Source of the DNA: a virus
Direction: 5' to 3' (one strand)
Length of the DNA: 22,903 nt
Virus record (IMG/VR): IMGVR_UViG_3300025543_000233
Location: 1 to 22,903 of that record
The notes beneath the pieces were generated by a model that did not search any database, had not been told where the DNA came from, and saw nothing but the letters and a program-made list of their open reading frames with translations. Position numbers and translations under genes: made by a program. This document shows, piece after piece, positions 9,610-22,887 of this stretch; the stretch's first letter is position 1; the number at the start of each line of letters is the position of its first letter.

Positions 9610-10206
9610 TTATTTAAAATTTGATATTTTATTTAAAACTCTATCTAATGTAGTATTCCCTCTTTTTTGTGAATACAAATTTAAATTAGGTTTGTTTTCT
9701 TTTTCAGGGTTATGAGTAACCTTTTGTACTGGTTCGCTTAATTCTTCTTTTTCAGCGTAAACAGTCTTTGTAGTTGTTTCTTCTGATTTAACAGAATTTT
9801 CACCTACAGGTTCTTCAGCCATTTCTTCTTCTTTAGGTTCAAGCATTGATTTAATTTCTTCAACCATTTCTTTAACCTCTTGAAGTTCTTCTTTAGTAGC
9901 GTAGTTCATTTCTTCTTTTTCAGCTTCTACTTCTTCTTCAGATTCAACTGCACCGATTGAAGCAATAATACCTTCTTCTTCTACAATTAATGATTCACCG
10001 TCTACAAGTTTGTATTCACCTACTGGCATTGCTACTTTTTCATCTTCGGTAACAATAAATATTTCGTTTCCAGCTTCAAAATTTTCGCTTTCAATAATTG
10101 CACCGTTTTCAAGTTCGGCTTGTGCCAACTTTACTTCTTTAGGTTCTTCAGATAACTCTACCCCAAGAACCTCTTTTACTTTGTTTAACATATCTGTTGC
10201 TTTCAT
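9610..10206 (-). CDS. Acidic coiled-coil protein, probable capsid scaffold
   Basis: A 198-residue, very acidic protein with a compact N-terminal beta region (I-F-I-V-T-E-D-E-K-V-A-M-P-V-G-E-Y-K-L) and long Glu-rich helices (about residues 85-130). A basic C-terminus ends T-L-D-R-V-L-N-K-I-S-N-F-K. A charged elongated middle with a short basic, capsid-binding C-terminus is the design of phage scaffolding proteins. The location between the protease and the capsid gene fits. The recurring 'N-G-A-I-I-E ... G-x-x-I-F-I-V-T-E-D-E' N-terminal segment is one I recall from marine phages. The protease at 11613 would be expected to remove it after assembly. Confidence 0.65.
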   Translation of the reverse strand: MKATDMLNKVKEVLGVELSEEPKEVKLAQAELENGAIIESENFEAGNEIFIVTEDEKVAMPVGEYKLVDGESLIVEEEGIIASIGAVESEEEVEAEKEEMNYATKEELQEVKEMVEEIKSMLEPKEEEMAEEPVGENSVKSEETTTKTVYAEKEELSEPVQKVTHNPEKENKPNLNLYSQKRGNTTLDRVLNKISNFK

Positions 10207-10212
10207 ATATAA

Positions 10213-10239
10213 TACAATAAATTAATAAATAGTTTGTTA
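10213..10239 (-). promoter_or_regulatory. Two-box motif (putative phage promoter), copy 2
   Basis: TAACAAA (10233-10239), a 12-base spacer, TTATTGTA (10213-10220), then six bases to ATG 10206 of the scaffold-like gene. The box pair lies in the 38-base gap after the gene ending at 10245. Confidence 0.65.
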
Positions 10240-10608: not shown

Positions 10609-11613
10609 TTATTTTATTGGTACGCAATTAGGTACTTTTTTACCGTTTTTCATTTTAAACCCTATCATTTCATAACCACTATAACAAGGTTTTTTTAATT
10701 CTTCTTCTATTAAATCAAGTTCTTTTAGTTTAGCACCTGCCCAACGTAAACCAGCTTTACCACCCCACAATAAATAAGATATAGTACCACACGCTTTACT
10801 ATCACTTTCATCGTAATCTTCTTGCGCCCTACTTAAATAGCTAAACATCCTTTTAATTGTTTCAGTTGTTATTGGTTTCCCTTGTGCTAATTGTTGCGCT
10901 CTTACTTTTCCTACTTGTGTTGCACACTTGTTGTTCACCTTTTCGTTTAATTCAATACCTCTTTTAGCATTATTTTTTACACCACTTGGATAATCAGAAT
11001 AAGATTCTAAATTTTCTTCTTTTAGTATATGCTTTAATTCATCAACTAATTCGTTAGCCATTTCCTCCTGTTCAGACATCTGATCTTTTACAGGTTCGTT
11101 AGGTCTTTGTAATTTATCAGCAAAGTAACCTTCTATACTAAATCCTTTTACTTCACCATCTTTTACTTTTTTCCAAACATCATCGTTATTAACTTTCATA
11201 GATACCATCCAAGTACCAATAGGTACGTTTAAATCGTACATTCTACTTTTATCTTGTTCACTTTCTACTATCCAACTTTCTACAGCAGTTAAACCTTTAA
11301 GTTCTAATTGGTGTTCTAATGTAGAGTTGTTTTGGTTTCCTTTTATAAAAAATAATTCACTTGCTTTACGTACAGTTGCTTGACTAAAGTAGATATAATA
11401 TTCTTGTTCGCCATTTTTACGATAGATAGGTTTGTTAGGTATTAAGGCTGCACCCATAAGGATACGTTTTTCTTTATCTACTTCTGCAAGTTTAAACTCT
11501 TGGTTTTTAAGTGCTATAAAGTTTTCTTCTATTGCTGGGTTTTCTACTACTGATATTGCTTCAATTCCAGAAACCTCATCGTTTTCATCTATAAAAAGTT
11601 CTACTATGTCCAT
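10609..11613 (-). CDS. XkdF-like prohead protease fused to a helical domain and Cys tail
   Basis: A 334-residue protein with three parts. The N-terminal region (about 1-180) has the outline of the XkdF/prohead protease family: L-M-G-A-A-L-I-P-N-K-P-I-Y-R, a loop with E-H-Q-L-E, V-E-S-W-I-V-E-S and G-T-W-M-V-S-M-K-V...V-K-G-F-S-I-E-G-Y-F, the last being the usual end of the core, with S/H residues as likely catalytic. A middle helical part (about 205-300) contains Y-P-S-G-V-K-N-N-A-K-R-G-I-E-L-N and V-G-K-V-R-A-Q-Q-L-A-Q-G-K-P-I...W-G-G-K-A-G-L-R-W-A, a module I have seen in other phage proteins. The C-terminus is G-Y-E-M-I-G-F-K-M-K-N-G-K-K-V-P-N-C-V-P. It probably matures the prohead. Confidence 0.7.
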   Translation of the reverse strand: MDIVELFIDENDEVSGIEAISVVENPAIEENFIALKNQEFKLAEVDKEKRILMGAALIPNKPIYRKNGEQEYYIYFSQATVRKASELFFIKGNQNNSTLEHQLELKGLTAVESWIVESEQDKSRMYDLNVPIGTWMVSMKVNNDDVWKKVKDGEVKGFSIEGYFADKLQRPNEPVKDQMSEQEEMANELVDELKHILKEENLESYSDYPSGVKNNAKRGIELNEKVNNKCATQVGKVRAQQLAQGKPITTETIKRMFSYLSRAQEDYDESDSKACGTISYLLWGGKAGLRWAGAKLKELDLIEEELKKPCYSGYEMIGFKMKNGKKVPNCVPIK

Positions 11614-11618
11614 ATTAT

Positions 11619-11645
11619 TACAATAATTATTTGTCTATTTTGTTA
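11619..11645 (-). promoter_or_regulatory. Two-box motif (putative phage promoter), copy 3
   Basis: TAACAAA (11639-11645), exactly 12 bases, TTATTGTA (11619-11626), then five bases to ATG 11613 of the protease gene. The upstream box overlaps the TAA stop of the tape measure gene (11643-11645). It is a candidate start for the head module. Confidence 0.65.
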
Positions 11646-13163
11646 TCCAATTGATGCACCTTCTACTATATTACGTTCTAATGCTTGTGCGTTAGTTACT
11701 TCGTTACTTACTACAAATGCTTTTATAGGTTTTTCTTCTTGTTCGCCTATTGTTTGCGCTAATTGGTTTTCAGGTGCTGCTCCTACTACGTTAAAACTTG
11801 GTGCTTGAGGTGCTGAAGCCTCACCTCTTGAACCTGCCATACCACCTCCTTTTGGTGTTTTAACACCTATTATCTTTTTAACCGTTTGAATACCTGATGC
11901 TAATATACCTGCTGCTGATATTGCTTTTTGTATTGAACCGAATGGTTCTGGTATTACTGATGGTGTAGCTAATATTTGACTAAACCCTAAATAACTATTA
12001 ATAGTTGCTTGTGCTATAGCTGCTGCTTTTCCTGCTGCACTATTTTCGCCTAACAAAGCTGCTACACCACCTAACGCTTGTGCAGTTAAGTCTAACTTTT
12101 GTTGTGCTGTTAACTCATCTTCTGCTTGTTCTTGTTTTGACGTTTGTGTTTTTAAATTGCTTAAATCAGCAACAGATATCTTTTGTTGTTCTATGCCTTT
12201 AGCCTGTATTTGGTTTATAGCATCACTTTGTTTTTGTATTGCATCAAGTTCTGCTTTACGTTCTGCTGCTTTTTTATCAGCTTCCATTTTACGCAACCCT
12301 GCTGCAACACCTAATAATTCTTTGTTTTTAAGTATGCGTTGTTCTTCAAGACCAATTACGTTAGCTATTAATTGTGCTTCTTCATCTAAATCTTCTTTTT
12401 TTGATCCACTGAAGGTATTTTCTTGAATTTTTATATCTCGCCTTGTTTCTGCTAATTTTACTTCTTTTGCTGTAATTTCATCTTCTAATGATGCTGCTTT
12501 TTCTAAAAATGCAATACGTTGTTCTGCTGTAAATTTATCTACTTCTGCTGCTTTTGTTTTTAGTTTGTTTATTTCAACATTTGTTTTTGCCCTTTCAATT
12601 AAAAGTTCTCTTTCAAGTTTATTAGCATCTGCTATTTTATCAGCAAGTTCACCAGCTATTTTTATTTCTTTTTGTGTTTCTTTTCCAAAGTTTTTAACCC
12701 TATTGCTAAATTCATCAAACGCTTCACCTGCTGCTTTTAAATCCCTATCAACAAAAACAGCTATTATTATATTCCCTAAACTTGAAAATATATCTGTAAC
12801 ATTACCAGCAATAATACCAAGTTGTTTTAATATTTTTGCAAATTTGTTTTGCCCTGCTTCACTTGATGTGAAGGCTGCTGTTAAAGCTGTAACTGCTATT
12901 ATTAGAGCACCAATACCTGTAGCTATGATTGCACCTCTTAATGTTTTAAAACCACCAATAACACCTTTTAATGTACCTGTAAAACCTTTAAACTTTGTGA
13001 TAGCACCACCAGTTACAGAATCTAATTGGTTACCCATTTCTTCAGTATTAGCAGTAACTTGTTTTGTTTCTTCGCTAACCTCTTGTATTGAATCTTGTAA
13101 GTCTTCAGCGTTATCTATTGCGCTTTTGGTTTTTAACTCAACGTCAATTACTACCTTTTCCAT
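11643..13163 (-). CDS. Tape measure protein
   Basis: A 506-residue protein, long-helical and Ala/Lys/Glu/Gln rich, with three hydrophobic segments early (about residues 60-150, such as AIIATGIGALIIAVTALTAA). Coiled-coil stretches (about 150-370) are followed by an Ala/Gly-rich later part with A-A-I-A-Q-A-T-I-N-S-Y-L-G-F-S-Q-I-L. The order of N-terminal glycine/hydrophobic segments, coiled coil and C-terminal A-T-x-x-S/A-Y motif is typical for tape measure proteins. At about 0.15 nm per residue it would set a tail near 76 nm, short for a siphovirus. It is the last gene of the tail block and ends at the promoter-like motif before the protease. Confidence 0.85.
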   Translation of the reverse strand: MEKVVIDVELKTKSAIDNAEDLQDSIQEVSEETKQVTANTEEMGNQLDSVTGGAITKFKGFTGTLKGVIGGFKTLRGAIIATGIGALIIAVTALTAAFTSSEAGQNKFAKILKQLGIIAGNVTDIFSSLGNIIIAVFVDRDLKAAGEAFDEFSNRVKNFGKETQKEIKIAGELADKIADANKLERELLIERAKTNVEINKLKTKAAEVDKFTAEQRIAFLEKAASLEDEITAKEVKLAETRRDIKIQENTFSGSKKEDLDEEAQLIANVIGLEEQRILKNKELLGVAAGLRKMEADKKAAERKAELDAIQKQSDAINQIQAKGIEQQKISVADLSNLKTQTSKQEQAEDELTAQQKLDLTAQALGGVAALLGENSAAGKAAAIAQATINSYLGFSQILATPSVIPEPFGSIQKAISAAGILASGIQTVKKIIGVKTPKGGGMAGSRGEASAPQAPSFNVVGAAPENQLAQTIGEQEEKPIKAFVVSNEVTNAQALERNIVEGASIG

Positions 13164-17462: not shown

Positions 17463-18944
17463 TTATACTATTACACCAACACCACCTCCTGTTGTATCAC
17501 AAGAAACTATTGCTAATTCACTTACTATTCCTGTACTTTCTATTTTTATAACATAATAACTACCAACACCTGCACCAACCGAACTAACAACAAATGCAGT
17601 AAATACACCGTAGTATAAACCTTTACCATCAAAAGCTACATCACCTTGACAAACTTGGCTATTTAGTAATGCTCCTAAACTTGCTGCTGTTGAGGTTATT
17701 AATTTAGGTGTTCCATAAGTTGCATCACAATGACCTTCTTGTGTTGATTTAGCAGAACTTAAATAAAATTGATTTGTACCACATATACTTACCGTTGCTG
17801 GTTGTGTCATTGTTACACTACAATCTATTGTTGATCCTGCATTTGCATATCCTGATGGTATTTCTATTTGATATACAACAGTTCTTGAAGTATCAGTTGC
17901 TACATCTGTAAAAGGTGTTGTAGGTGCTGTAAAACTTTTAACCGTACCTAATGATGCTGTACCTAAAAATATAGCACCATTTCTTGCTATTGCTTGACCT
18001 GTTAAATTAGCTAATGAACAAGTAAATGTAGGTGCTGCTGTACCAGGTTGTGAAAAGGTTGCAGAACATTCTACCGTAGCACTTGCGTTAGAATAACCTG
18101 ATGGTACTGTAATATTAAAAAACAATGTAACGTTTTGTGCGTTTGTACCTGAATTTGCTGCTACACTTGTTATTGCACCTCCACCAGATGTAGCCATTAT
18201 TTTTGTTATCGTACCTATTGTTGATGGGTTTGTTATTACACCTGCTTGACTAATACCTCCACCTTGTAAAGCTGGGTTTGTAGGTGCAGTACAACTAAAT
18301 GCAGTAGTACTATCTGTAACTGTAACAGCTATGCTTTGTGTTGCTTCACAAGTTGCTGGGTAGCTATTATCCCTACCAATACCATAAACTGTTGTTGATC
18401 CTGCTATAACGTTTGGTGATAATGTTAATACACTACCACTTAATGCTGCTGTTACTAATGTAGGGTTTAGGTTAGAAGCATCGTATGTTGTTTCACCTGT
18501 AAAGAATCCTGCTAAATCAATATCTACACTTGAACCACCTACACTTAAACTTTGCCCACCAATAGAACCTGATGTTGTTACTGTTGTTGTACATACAGTA
18601 GGCTGTACTACAGAACTTGTTGTACCTGCTTGTGTTGCAGTAACAGGGCATTCAAAAAATATATCACTTGTATTTGCATAACCTGTAGGTATAAGCAGTT
18701 TAATTTTAATGGTTCTTGATGTATCAGTACCTTCTGCTGGGAATTTGTTATTTGCAAAATCACCATCATCACTCGATATAGAATCTATAACCCCAACTGC
18801 TGGACTTGGCAAAGTAATAATACCTTGATTATCTACTGCAAAACCTACTAACCCTGCTACCGTACAATCAAAGTTTGGTAATGGAGGACTTGGTTCTACA
18901 AGGTGTAAATAAAATGGACTTCTAACGTTTATTTTTGTACTCAT
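17463..18944 (-). CDS. Repeat-containing beta-rich tail protein
   Basis: A 493-residue Ser/Thr/Gly-rich protein with three related units at about residues 24-107, 215-302 and 306-385. Each opens with F-x-C, has a central hydrophobic G-x-I segment and ends with I-P-S/T-G-Y-A/S-N followed by C-x-V/A-T-x-x-Q-P/A-G/A-T. Each unit therefore carries a cysteine pair. Between the first and second lies a different Ig-like region (about 125-210). The C-terminal 105 residues contain four more Cys and a glycine-rich end (TTGGGVGVIV). Such surface repeats suit a tail decoration or receptor-binding protein; a tail fibre is the alternative. Start shares a base with the upstream stop (TAATG). Confidence 0.65.
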   Translation of the reverse strand: MSTKINVRSPFYLHLVEPSPPLPNFDCTVAGLVGFAVDNQGIITLPSPAVGVIDSISSDDGDFANNKFPAEGTDTSRTIKIKLLIPTGYANTSDIFFECPVTATQAGTTSSVVQPTVCTTTVTTSGSIGGQSLSVGGSSVDIDLAGFFTGETTYDASNLNPTLVTAALSGSVLTLSPNVIAGSTTVYGIGRDNSYPATCEATQSIAVTVTDSTTAFSCTAPTNPALQGGGISQAGVITNPSTIGTITKIMATSGGGAITSVAANSGTNAQNVTLFFNITVPSGYSNASATVECSATFSQPGTAAPTFTCSLANLTGQAIARNGAIFLGTASLGTVKSFTAPTTPFTDVATDTSRTVVYQIEIPSGYANAGSTIDCSVTMTQPATVSICGTNQFYLSSAKSTQEGHCDATYGTPKLITSTAASLGALLNSQVCQGDVAFDGKGLYYGVFTAFVVSSVGAGVGSYYVIKIESTGIVSELAIVSCDTTGGGVGVIV

Positions 18945-19456
18945 TATTTTCTAAATAAATTGTTTATGTCTTCACCAAAAGCAAATGCTAAATCATCAGG
19001 TAATTTTTTAAATGCTTGTTCAAATGGTTTAGTAAAGAACAAACTTGGTTTTAATCCTTTTCTGTATATACTTCTTGCTATTAAAAACCCTATTGTATTA
19101 TAGTTGCCTTTTTTAAACTTACCTTCTTTATCTCTTAACCTTATGTTTTTGCTTTTTGCCCATTGTGCTAACGGTTTAATTGGGGGCATTTTGTTTGTAT
19201 ATGAAAATGGTGTATCGTATTTGTTTTCTGTTCCACTAACACCACGATCTTGGTACATACCGTAATCTTCCATTTCAAAAGATAAGGTGTTTTTTTTGTT
19301 ATCTAAAAAATAAGCAAGGCTTTTATATAGTTGACCATCTGATGAGGTTGTACCCTTACCTTTTTTTGATTTGTTTTTAGATAATCTTGTTCTTGCTTGT
19401 TGTACTACAAACTTACCAAACTTATTAAGTTCTTTATTTATGTTTTCTAACTGCAT
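18944..19456 (-). CDS. HK97 gp10-like tail completion / neck protein
   Basis: A 170-residue basic protein with an N-terminal helix (MQLENINKELNKFGKFVVQQ), then S-S-D-G-Q-L-Y-K-S-L-A-Y and M-P-P-I-K-P-L-A-Q-W-A-K-S-K-N-I. It ends with G-L-K-P-S-L-F-F-T-K-P-F-E-Q-A-F. These elements (an S-G-x-L-x-x-S strand, an L-x-x-W-A-x-x-x-x-I helix and F-F...P-F) fit the HK97 gp10-like family, which acts at the head-tail junction or tail terminus. It overlaps the upstream tail completion gene by 10 bases, which is consistent with the pair of terminator-type proteins often encoded side by side. Confidence 0.65.
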   Translation of the reverse strand: MQLENINKELNKFGKFVVQQARTRLSKNKSKKGKGTTSSDGQLYKSLAYFLDNKKNTLSFEMEDYGMYQDRGVSGTENKYDTPFSYTNKMPPIKPLAQWAKSKNIRLRDKEGKFKKGNYNTIGFLIARSIYRKGLKPSLFFTKPFEQAFKKLPDDLAFAFGEDINNLFRK

Positions 19457-19905
19457 ATTGTCATATCGTTTTGTACTAATACGTCAAAGGTTGCTGACCA
19501 CCCTGCTAACTTGTTTTCAAACCTATCTACAAATGGTTCACAACTTACATCACCCTGTACTTGGTAGAGGTTAGTATATAGATCACCACGTTGTAAGATG
19601 TTTATTATTCTTGTTAGTAATCCTAATTGTGTATTTAGTACATCTTGTTCGTTATCGTTTCCTACAAATATGTCAGTTGTTTCTGCTTTGCTTATATCTA
19701 CAATATCCATTGATAATATAGAAATGTTAAACGTTAATGTTTTAGTTCCTACAGTTGTGTTGTTTACAATTATATGGCTTAATGGGAATATAGTTTGCTT
19801 GTTTAAATCTACATCATCTAAACTACCAAATGTAACCGTGTTAACAAATGGTTCTGCTGCAAGTGCTGTTTTTAATTGTTCCGTTACGTTGTAAAAACCT
19901 TTCAT
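19447..19905 (-). CDS. Tail terminator-like / tail completion protein
   Basis: A 152-residue protein of alpha/beta character, starting MKGFYNVTEQLKTALAAEPF. It has a strand-rich middle with L-S-M-D-I-V-D and then D-N-E-Q-D-V-L-N-T-Q-L-G-L-L-T-R-I-I-N-I-L helix, G-D-V-S-C-E-P-F-V-D-R-F-E-N-K-L-A-G-W and a C-terminal beta strand ending in M-T-I-C-S. The helix plus 'E-P-F-x-x-x-x-x-N-x-L-A-G-W' segment is common to proteins encoded next to gp10-like genes in Bacteroidetes phages, and the size matches tail terminators. Its ATG overlaps the stop of the -1 frame of the upstream chaperone (ATGA at 19902-19905), which supports that frame being translated. Confidence 0.55.
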   Translation of the reverse strand: MKGFYNVTEQLKTALAAEPFVNTVTFGSLDDVDLNKQTIFPLSHIIVNNTTVGTKTLTFNISILSMDIVDISKAETTDIFVGNDNEQDVLNTQLGLLTRIINILQRGDLYTNLYQVQGDVSCEPFVDRFENKLAGWSATFDVLVQNDMTICS

Positions 19906-20638
19906 CGTTTTTTAATTAACTTCTTTTCTAATTCTACTTTATCTTTTTCAAATGACAAATACATTAAACATTGGTGGACATTAAGCTGGGTAACCTCGTC
20001 AAACTTGGTAGCATCTCCTTTAGCAATACCATAGACTGACTGATACCAGCCCCACTTTGTCCCAAACGTTCCCTCTGTTGAATAGTCAAGTTCTTGGGTA
20101 ACTCCTTCTGTAAATAGTTCAGGATAGTTTGCGTTAACTCGTTGCTTAAATGATAAAAAAAAACCATAGAACCAAACACAATATCTAAAGGCATATACTT
20201 TAGGTTGTCGTTCATACCTTTGTATTCTTCTATATTGTACTTGTTACCTTTCTTAAATTTAATTGGTCTGTATAACACGCTCATTGCTTTGTGCATATTA
20301 TCCCAATTGCCCAAGTTCTCATCCAGATCAATAAACTCACCTAAAGACATATCATCAAGTACAGGTATAAATCCATACTCTACATTGCCTAAAGTAAACG
20401 TAGGTACTAAACTATGCTTCTTATCAAATATCTTGTTGAGGTGTACTACTATCTCTTGTACTGATTTGTATTTTATGTTTGCAACATCCTTTAAGTTAAG
20501 GCTGCAAAATATCTCTACCATCTTTTGTAGTAAAAATGTAGATTCTTTATTTTCTTCTGTATTTAACTTTTCAAATCTTTGGTATTGATCTAAAGTTATT
20601 TCTTTAAGTGAATCAGGTACGTTTATTTCAACTTTCAT
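19902..20638 (-). CDS. Tail assembly chaperone, predicted -1 frameshift product (245 aa)
   Basis: If ribosomes slip -1 within the T-run (20155-20163), the product keeps the first 161 residues and continues for 84 more: L-S-F-K-Q-R-V-N-A-N-Y-P-E-L-F-T-E-G-V-T..., then F-G-T-K-W-G-W-Y-Q-S-V-Y-G-I-A-K-G-D and K-F-D-E-V-T-Q-L-N-V-H-Q-C-L-M-Y-L-S-F-E-K-D-K-V-E-L-E. The aromatic K-W-G-W-Y and terminal charged helix resemble the second domain of tail chaperones (lambda GT-type), and the frame has no usable start codon of its own before its last 30 codons. It ends in an ATGA overlap with the next gene. An undercounted T (ten instead of nine) would instead join the frames permanently. Confidence 0.7.
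19964..20638 (-). CDS. Tail assembly chaperone, 0-frame product
   Basis: A 224-residue protein from ATG 20638. An earlier in-frame ATG at 20689 would translate the terminator hairpin and the two-box motif, so 20638 is preferred. It begins MKVEINVPDSLKEITLDQYQ, is charged and helical, and contains F-G-S-M-V-F-F-Y-H-L-S-N-E-L (about 154-167), a pattern I associate with tail assembly chaperones of Bacteroidetes phages. It is the first gene of the tail block, the place of G/GT-type chaperones in other siphoviruses. At residues 159-161 it crosses a run of nine T, where a -1 shift would yield a different C-terminus. The last 63 codons of this frame are read also in the -1 frame. Confidence 0.7.
   Translation of the reverse strand: MKVEINVPDSLKEITLDQYQRFEKLNTEENKESTFLLQKMVEIFCSLNLKDVANIKYKSVQEIVVHLNKIFDKKHSLVPTFTLGNVEYGFIPVLDDMSLGEFIDLDENLGNWDNMHKAMSVLYRPIKFKKGNKYNIEEYKGMNDNLKYMPLDIVFGSMVFFYHLSNELTQTILNYLQKELPKNLTIQQRERLGQSGAGISQSMVLLKEMLPSLTRLPSLMSTNV
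20155..20163 (-). other. Putative -1 slippery site (nine T)
   Basis: In the 0 frame the sequence is GTT TTT TTT TAT, so P- and A-site tRNAs can re-pair perfectly after moving back one base. It lies at codons 159-162 of the chaperone. The -1 frame remains open from here to 19902. Downstream stimulatory RNA structure was not assessed. Confidence 0.65.
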
Positions 20639-20643
20639 ATTAA

Positions 20644-20670
20644 TACAATAAATTAATTGGTGTTTTGTAT
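20644..20670 (-). promoter_or_regulatory. Two-box motif (putative phage promoter), copy 4
   Basis: ATACAAA (20664-20670), 12-base spacer, TTATTGTA (20644-20651), then five bases to ATG 20638 of the tail chaperone. It abuts the T-tract (20671-20681) of the preceding terminator. In this copy ATACAA and TTGTAT also form a perfect inverted repeat 16 bases apart. Confidence 0.65.
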
Positions 20671-21720: not shown

Positions 21721-22887
21721 TTAATATATGTAGTATTCGCCTTTGTTAGGGTTTTCTAATTGGTCTGTTAATACGTACCTCAAACTATCTATGCAATCTG
21801 GATGTTCACCTGATGGTTTATTTAAGGTATTACCATCTTTATCCTTTGCCCATATGTAACCTTGTAGTTCTCTTTTTAAGTTCCTGCTTCTTGATGTAAT
21901 GTATATTTCATTTTGGTTTATTAGGTTTATACCAAAGTTTACACTATCTCTACCTTTTGTACACGGATATATATTATGCCCATCCCTACGCAAAGTTTCA
22001 ATACTCTTTGGTTCTGCTGAATCTGCAATTAAGTTTTCTGTTATATTATTTTGTCGTAAGAACATAGATAAATCCCTTAATACTGTATTTGATTTGTAAA
22101 ATACCTCATCTGCTATGTAAGCATCATTCCATTTATATAGAGATACAATAACTGTAGGATCAGTATAACCAAAATCAACACCGTGTGCTAACAAACGTGC
22201 TTCTTGTGGTATGTTATCTATTTCTTTCCAATCAGGAATACATACACCTTCTAAAGAACCTGTTTCACCAAGTCCGTACACCCTCCACCAATTTGACCAA
22301 TACGTTGAGGTTTTGCCTTTATCTCTTGCTTTCTCTATTTCTTTAACAATGCTTACAGGTAGTACTTCGTTATCCTTGTAGGTTAGTGTTATGTAATCAA
22401 CATCTTCTTTGCCTACTAATTCTTTATCTACCCAAAAGATATTAGAAGGGTTATAGTCTAACCAAACGTTTCCACTTGTTCTTACTGCTAATTGGTTGTA
22501 AGCATCAAAGGGTACATTGTTGCACTCGTTAATGTATAAATCAGTTCTTCTTGCTCCACGTAGTTTGTCAGGTTGATCTGTACTAAAAAACTCTATATAA
22601 CTGCCATTTGTAAATGTGTATTTTAAGATACTTTTATTAAGCTGTATATCCTTATACCTATTTAAACCTTTTAACAGTTGGCAGAAGTCCTTAAAAGCAC
22701 CTCTACGTAAGTGTGGTATTGATTCACTTACTACGCTTATTTCTTTACCTTCGTTTTTAATGGCATAATCTATAAGTATAAGCAGGATGCAAATGGTTTT
22801 ACCTGCTGATGTACCACCTCTTACAATGCGTACCCTCTTATCAAGTTTACGTAGCTTATTTAGTGCTTGTGTTGTTTGTACTTGCAT
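21721..22887 (-). CDS. terL: Terminase large subunit
   Basis: A 388-residue DNA-packaging motor starting MQVQTTQALNKLRKLDKRVR. The ATPase domain has Walker A R-G-G-T-S-A-G-K-T (residues 23-31), Walker B L-Y-I-N-E (117-121) and a D-Y-N-P-S coupling motif (144-148). The nuclease domain has G-V-D-F-G-Y-T-D-P-T with Asp238, L-I-A-D-S with Asp289, and D-C-I-D-S with Asp367 near the end, as in RNase H-fold terminases of the Terminase_3/PBSX type. It cuts concatemers and drives DNA into the prohead through the portal, here encoded about 14.5 kb away. The frame stays open to the window edge (no stop upstream), so an earlier start is possible. No small subunit is in the window. Confidence 0.93.
   Translation of the reverse strand: MQVQTTQALNKLRKLDKRVRIVRGGTSAGKTICILLILIDYAIKNEGKEISVVSESIPHLRRGAFKDFCQLLKGLNRYKDIQLNKSILKYTFTNGSYIEFFSTDQPDKLRGARRTDLYINECNNVPFDAYNQLAVRTSGNVWLDYNPSNIFWVDKELVGKEDVDYITLTYKDNEVLPVSIVKEIEKARDKGKTSTYWSNWWRVYGLGETGSLEGVCIPDWKEIDNIPQEARLLAHGVDFGYTDPTVIVSLYKWNDAYIADEVFYKSNTVLRDLSMFLRQNNITENLIADSAEPKSIETLRRDGHNIYPCTKGRDSVNFGINLINQNEIYITSRSRNLKRELQGYIWAKDKDGNTLNKPSGEHPDCIDSLRYVLTDQLENPNKGEYYIY

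What the first reader, a model, noticed from the sequence alone, without database searches (positions are those of the whole stretch)
19902..20164. Programmed -1 frameshift in the tail assembly chaperone with a 190-base dual-coding region
The 0 frame passes through GTT TTT TTT TAT. The -1 frame is open from upstream (last stop TAA about 75 bases before the run) to 19902, giving 84 extra residues that look like a true domain (K-W-G-W-Y, K-F-D-E-V-T, terminal charged helix). It contains no ATG, GTG or TTG before its last 30 codons, so it needs the shift to be made. Its stop overlaps the next gene's start (ATGA). Tail chaperones of many long-tailed phages use a -1 shift (lambda G/GT). Here the shift is placed early, so both the 63-residue 0-frame tail and the 84-residue -1 tail would be made from the same DNA, whereas in lambda the slip lies near the end of G. 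The T-run of nine is also the kind of place where sequencing can lose a base.
Basis: partly seen in the sequence, partly recalled or inferred. Interest (0 to 1): 0.8.

Follow-up and report, generated by a model that had tools for sequence, protein, structure and literature searches.

The report
Phage tail-chaperone frameshift with dual-coded tail
A gene in this uncultured phage changes reading frame at an invariant run of nine T's, so that the same roughly 190 bases encode two different protein endings; hundreds of related phages keep the switch, which makes it a real but variant form of the known frameshift in phage tail-assembly genes.

Summary
The minus-strand gene (20638 to 19964 in frame 0, 19902 in frame -1) carries T9 with an in-phase T_TTT_TTT. 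In relatives the frame relation is -1 in 460 of 461 loci holding both domains, and every run checked has at least nine T's, so T9 is not a lost base. Distant single-frame phage proteins align end to end with the trans-frame product (hhalign E 4e-13). In 82 disjoint sister pairs, 351 changes silent in frame -1 should have made 15 stops in frame 0; none occurred. The mirror test: 18.5 expected, none seen. Constraint on the 0-frame tail beyond staying open is weak. The long overlap (about 190 nt; lambda and P2 15-18) is a clade trait; the Nonlabens phage clade has about 50-80 nt. Most likely this is a G/GT-like tail assembly chaperone pair made by ribosomal -1 slippage. Chaperone function is inferred: no Pfam hit, PHROGs of unknown function, but a single-frame homologue lies close upstream of an annotated tape measure gene. 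Transcriptional slippage on T9 is a live rival: runs are never shorter than nine, no conserved RNA structure was found, and A/T runs of nine or more are avoided elsewhere.

The parts
19964..20638 (-). 0-frame CDS (224 aa): N-terminal domain (residues 1-161) plus 63-residue alternative tail
   Evidence: start supported by alignment of relatives; phrog_32199, unknown function, E 4e-16
20155..20163 (-). T9 run; in-phase T_TTT_TTT heptamer at 20162-20156
   Evidence: run of at least 9 in all distinct relatives examined
19902..20156 (-). -1 frame extension (84 aa plus stop), FGTKWGWY...FEKDKVELEKKLIKK domain
   Evidence: conserved to about 30% identity; in the same frame as the N domain in Duneviridae-type homologues
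19964..20155 (-). dual-coded stretch (189 nt of 0-frame sense codons plus stop)
19447..19905 (-). next gene (152 aa), start ATGA overlapping the -1 stop; phrog_30964, unknown function
18944..19456 (-). second gene downstream (170 aa), phrog_29822; one relative hits 'tail completion or Neck1 protein' weakly (E 0.004)
21721..22887 (-). terminase large subunit, upstream of the gene
   Evidence: Pfam Terminase_3 E 2e-14

Best explanation
This is a programmed -1 frame change in a phage tail-assembly chaperone gene that works like lambda G/GT. Most translation stays in frame and gives a 224-residue protein (G-like). A fraction slips back one base at T_TTT_TTT and gives a 245-residue protein with a different C-terminal domain (GT-like). 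Shown here: the two frames, their invariant relation, selection keeping both open, and single-frame homologues of the fused product. Inferred: that the shift is ribosomal, that both proteins are made, and that they act as tail-assembly chaperones. Unlike lambda, the slip lies 190 bases before the 0-frame stop, so three quarters of the -1 domain is dual-coded.
For: -1 relation in 460 of 461 loci with both domains. TTT TTT preceded by T in 217/217 distinct sequences. No 0-frame stop among 351 -1-silent changes (15.2 expected) and no -1 stop among 240 0-silent changes (18.5 expected) in 82 disjoint sister pairs. Chance that the 0 frame stays open given the -1 protein is mostly 0.001-0.07 per sequence in representatives with the long overlap. 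The trans-frame profile aligns over 227 columns with single-frame proteins of Flavobacterium, Cellulophaga, Polaribacter and Microcystis phages (E 4e-13); the 0-frame profile aligns only to about 15 residues past the junction. In Cellulophaga phage Ingeline_1 that single-frame gene lies about 1 kb upstream of an annotated tape measure gene. Apart from a TTG formed by the run itself in 43 of 102 relatives, most have no start codon in the -1 frame until its last quarter.
Against: No Pfam or NCBIfam hit, and PHROGs of unknown function. Fold match to an annotated tail chaperone is weak (BFVD E 0.18). In the window the gene sits near the terminase, not beside an identified tape measure gene. No conserved downstream RNA stimulator. 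The run is never shorter than nine T's, although seven would suffice for tandem tRNA slippage.
Confidence: 0.68

Rival explanations
1. Transcriptional slippage: RNA polymerase adds one U while copying the run of nine, so a fraction of mRNAs carries the fused frame. The protein products are the same as for ribosomal slippage.
For: Run length is 9, 10 or 12 in all 217 distinct relatives and never 7-8. Where a flank changes, the other side keeps nine (TTT TTT TTT CTG; GCT TTT TTT TTG). Bacterial polymerase slips efficiently at nine A/T, with T. thermophilus dnaX as a used case (review PMC5009743). A/T runs of 9 or more are avoided elsewhere (2 seen, about 39 expected), and T7-8 avoidance hardly depends on phase. 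No RNA stimulator found.
Against: The flanking T's are largely explained by amino-acid constraint: V/L/I/F before, and T-initial codons plus Leu/Phe in the -1 frame after. The in-phase heptamer is always present. Known tail chaperones, including P2 with only T6G, use ribosomal slippage. Avoidance of long runs could also reflect replication indels.
Confidence: 0.28
2. Sequencing or assembly error, or a true single-frame gene with T10.
For: One contig, L410, has T10 and a single frame. Homopolymers are error-prone.
Against: 460 of 461 loci from many metagenomes and isolate phages show the -1 relation. Other T10 relatives keep the -1 relation because the extra T replaces the first base of the preceding codon or lies in the following codon.
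Confidence: 0.01
3. Two separate overlapping genes, the second started internally, as annotated for P12024L genes 40 and 41.
For: The isolate record annotates a separate 55-residue ORF. 43 of 102 relatives have a TTG made by the run itself.
Against: No other usable start before the last quarter of the -1 frame in most relatives. The run would have no reason to be invariant. Single-frame homologues carry both domains in one protein.
Confidence: 0.03
4. A sub-question compatible with the best explanation: the 0-frame tail is only a by-product, kept open so that ribosomes cover the mRNA or so that the product is not truncated too early, and is not a functional domain.
For: 0-frame sequence conservation is barely above a null matched for nucleotide divergence (BLOSUM 1.26 against 1.19). 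The Inhavirus clade does with about 25 residues or fewer.
Against: A length of about 50-67 residues is kept in nearly all other relatives. AlphaFold models a helical hairpin there, at low to middling confidence, pLDDT about 63-69 over most of it.
Confidence: 0.4

Closest known systems
Lambda G/GT tail assembly chaperones
   Same: Two products with a shared N-terminus by -1 slip at an in-phase XXXYYYZ; longer form adds a C-terminal domain
   Different: Lambda slips at GGGAAAG 15 nt before the G stop; here 190 nt, so most of the extension is dual-coded; no detectable sequence similarity; gene lies near the terminase
P2 E / E+E'
   Same: T-run slip site (T_TTT_TTG), -1 extension reaching the next gene's start
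   Different: 18 nt from slip to the E stop (annotation); run of six T's, not nine
Inhavirus P12024L/S genes 40 and 41 (phrog_32199 / phrog_38404)
   Same: Homologous N domain and -1 domain, same T9 in the same phase
   Different: 0 frame ends about 25 codons after the slip; annotated as two hypothetical proteins
Duneviridae-type single-frame proteins (Flavobacterium 23T and laban6-1, Cellulophaga Ingeline)
   Same: Same end-to-end architecture as the trans-frame product (hhalign E 4e-13)
   Different: One continuous frame, no shift needed; only about 17% identity
Thermus thermophilus dnaX T9 (transcriptional slippage)
   Same: Nine-T run used to reach another frame
   Different: Cellular gene; mechanism there shown at transcription (PMC5009743)

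Membership tests
G/GT-type tail assembly chaperone pair | Second ORF in the -1 frame reachable only by a shift, with a conserved slippery heptamer | tested here: met
G/GT-type tail assembly chaperone pair | Both frames under selection | tested here: met
   (0 stops against 15.2 and 18.5 expected)
G/GT-type tail assembly chaperone pair | Gene lies just upstream of the tape measure gene | tested here: inconclusive
   In the window it lies after the terminase and several kb before a candidate tape measure gene (11643-13163, PHROG of unknown function, my reading only); a single-frame homologue lies about 1 kb upstream of an annotated tape measure gene
G/GT-type tail assembly chaperone pair | Sequence or fold similarity to known chaperones | tested here: inconclusive
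   No Pfam/NCBIfam hit; BFVD hit to an annotated chaperone only E 0.18
G/GT-type tail assembly chaperone pair | Slip close to the 3' end of G (short overlap); typical rather than strictly defining | tested here: not met
   190 nt here, 15 in lambda and 18 in P2
G/GT-type tail assembly chaperone pair | Products bind tape measure and tail tube proteins, are absent from virions, and are made in a set ratio | not testable with these tools
   needs protein experiments
Ribosomal -1 frameshift | Shift happens on the ribosome | not testable with these tools
   T9 also fits polymerase slippage
Ribosomal -1 frameshift | Downstream stimulatory RNA structure (optional, not required) | tested here: not met
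   no consensus pairs, z-scores near 0; pseudoknots were not modelled
Transcriptional slippage site | Homopolymer of about nine or more A/T | tested here: met
   run at least 9 in all distinct relatives
Transcriptional slippage site | mRNAs of mixed length at the run | not testable with these tools
   needs RNA sequencing

The most novel reading that the evidence does not exclude
The switch works at transcription: the nine-T run makes the phage's mRNAs heterogeneous, giving the two chaperone forms in a set ratio without ribosomal slippage, while the phages avoid such runs everywhere else. To my knowledge this would be a first for a phage tail chaperone.
Probability: 0.28. Interest if true: 0.7.

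Novelty: new variant of a known kind. Interest (0 to 1): 0.52.

Why it matters
It turns two families of unknown function, widespread in environmental phages and annotated as separate genes in isolates, into one likely tail-assembly chaperone pair. It also offers a long, deeply sampled dual-coded stretch in phage DNA. Because single-frame and shifted versions of the same protein both exist, comparing them can show what the frame change is for.

Tried and rejected
Lost base (T10): rejected by hundreds of relatives. Conserved RNA structure downstream: none found (pseudoknots not modelled). Nei-Gojobori dS contrast between the overlap and the -1-only part: not used as proof, because the -1-only part is rich in two-fold codons and composition-matched nulls show no extra silent-site suppression in the overlap. 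Flavobacterium phage 6H gp10 looked like a short-overlap version with T_TTT_TTC, but the shift there runs into a stop and close relatives have one continuous ORF, so that lead was dropped. -1 domain alone against Duneviridae proteins: not significant; only the whole fusion is. Fold search against PDB: no useful match for the N domain; VIA matches were to common helical hairpins. Viral fold search with the -1 domain: nothing, and the model is poor. The neighbouring 152-residue gene could not be assigned.

Full report
What is there. The gene lies on the minus strand. Its 0 frame runs from ATG 20638 to the stop at 19964 and gives 224 residues. At 20163-20155 it reads GTT TTT TTT TAT (nine T's). 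The -1 frame continues from TTA at 20156 to a stop at 19902 (84 residues), overlapping the ATG of the next gene as ATGA. The window is an IMG/VR record of 22,903 bases with a terminase; portal-like, capsid-like and tail-like genes are my reading of the ORF list.

Conservation. Searches of IMG/VR and GTDB genomes gave several hundred relatives. In the first 102 distinct complete sequences the run is T9, in the same phase, in every one, down to 26% identity in isolate phages P12024L/S. In 217 distinct sequences the run is 9 (192), 10 (24) or 12 (1), with TTT TTT in all and a T before it in all. In the widest set both domains are found in 461 loci and the relation is -1 in 460. The exception, L410, has T10 and a single frame. 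L191 in that table is a clipped hit; its run is nine.

Both frames are kept open. With the -1 protein fixed and silent codons drawn at random, the 0 frame stays open for its observed length with probability mostly 0.001-0.07 per sequence. Between 82 disjoint sister pairs there are 351 changes silent in the -1 frame; 15.2 should have created a 0-frame stop and none did. The mirror test gives 18.5 expected -1 stops and none seen. Sequences were required to have an overlap of at least 140 nt, which leaves out the few short-overlap ones, so the first count is slightly favoured by the choice of data. Beyond openness, 0-frame residue similarity is only a little above a null matched for nucleotide divergence (1.26 against 1.19, sd 0.02, pairs not independent). 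A looser null gives a larger excess (1.22 against 0.61), but it ignores shared ancestry. Codon-position and dN/dS figures agree that the -1 frame is the more strongly constrained of the two in the overlap, with the caution given under Tried and rejected.

The overlap. It is 189 nt of sense codons here, median 171 nt in 217 relatives, and about 50-80 nt in the Inhavirus clade. Lambda and P2 have 15 and 18 nt; in four other model phages the -1 frame is open for at most 25-112 nt before the 0 stop. So long dual coding is a clade feature, not a rule of the family.

What the fused product is. The trans-frame profile aligns over 227 columns, through the junction, with single-frame proteins of 259-301 residues in Flavobacterium, Cellulophaga, Polaribacter and Microcystis phages (probability 98%, E 4e-13). 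The 0-frame profile aligns only to about 15 residues past the junction. In Cellulophaga phage Ingeline_1 this gene is followed by two genes and then an annotated TP901-type tape measure gene. This supports a tail-assembly role and shows that the two domains belong in one protein. The -1 domain alone is not significantly similar. AlphaFold models the N domain well (pLDDT about 80-95), the 0-frame tail as a weak helical hairpin, and the -1 domain poorly.

How it most likely works. In lambda, gpG and gpGT bind the tape measure protein and the T part recruits tail tube subunits (review PMC5009743). By analogy the 0-frame product would be the abundant chaperone and the -1 product the rarer linker. 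Ribosomes that shift end on the next gene's start codon, which would couple its translation to shifting; ribosomes that do not shift stop 62-95 nt earlier in most relatives. This coupling is inference.

Mechanism of the frame change. The heptamer T_TTT_TTT fits tandem tRNA slippage. However, the run is never shorter than nine, the length at which bacterial RNA polymerase slips efficiently (PMC5009743). In 522 genes of 126 non-redundant relatives, A/T runs of nine or more occur twice where about 39 are expected from synonymous-codon shuffles. T7-8 runs are avoided in phase (ratio 0.27) and out of phase (0.39) alike. No conserved structure lies downstream. The flanking T's can also be explained by protein constraint, so I favour ribosomal slippage at roughly two to one.

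Literature. No paper in the searched library was found to link this family or Bacteroidota phages to a tail-chaperone frameshift; the library is partial.

Noticed in passing
window 20636-20654, 11611-11629, about 10200-10226 (minus strand): An AT-rich element (about TTATTGTATTAATATG) ends in the start codon of three genes of the window and is conserved before the start in most close relatives of the frameshift gene; it may be a phage promoter or initiation signal.
   Followed up: partly
L410:3030-3039: One contig has T10 and fuses the two frames, while its close relatives have T9; either an assembly error or a real indel.
   Followed up: partly
L484:10352-10927 (Flavobacterium phage 6H gp10): The gene is interrupted relative to close relatives (23T, FPSV-F7), with a diverged C-terminus; possibly a sequencing error or a real truncation.
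   Followed up: partly
related loci, 522 genes: A/T runs of nine or more are strongly avoided in genes of these phages (2 seen, about 39 expected), largely regardless of phase.
   Followed up: partly
L003:4001-4695 and L004:3001-3695: Nonlabens phages P12024L/S annotate the two parts as separate hypothetical proteins; they are better read as one frameshifted gene.
   Followed up: yes
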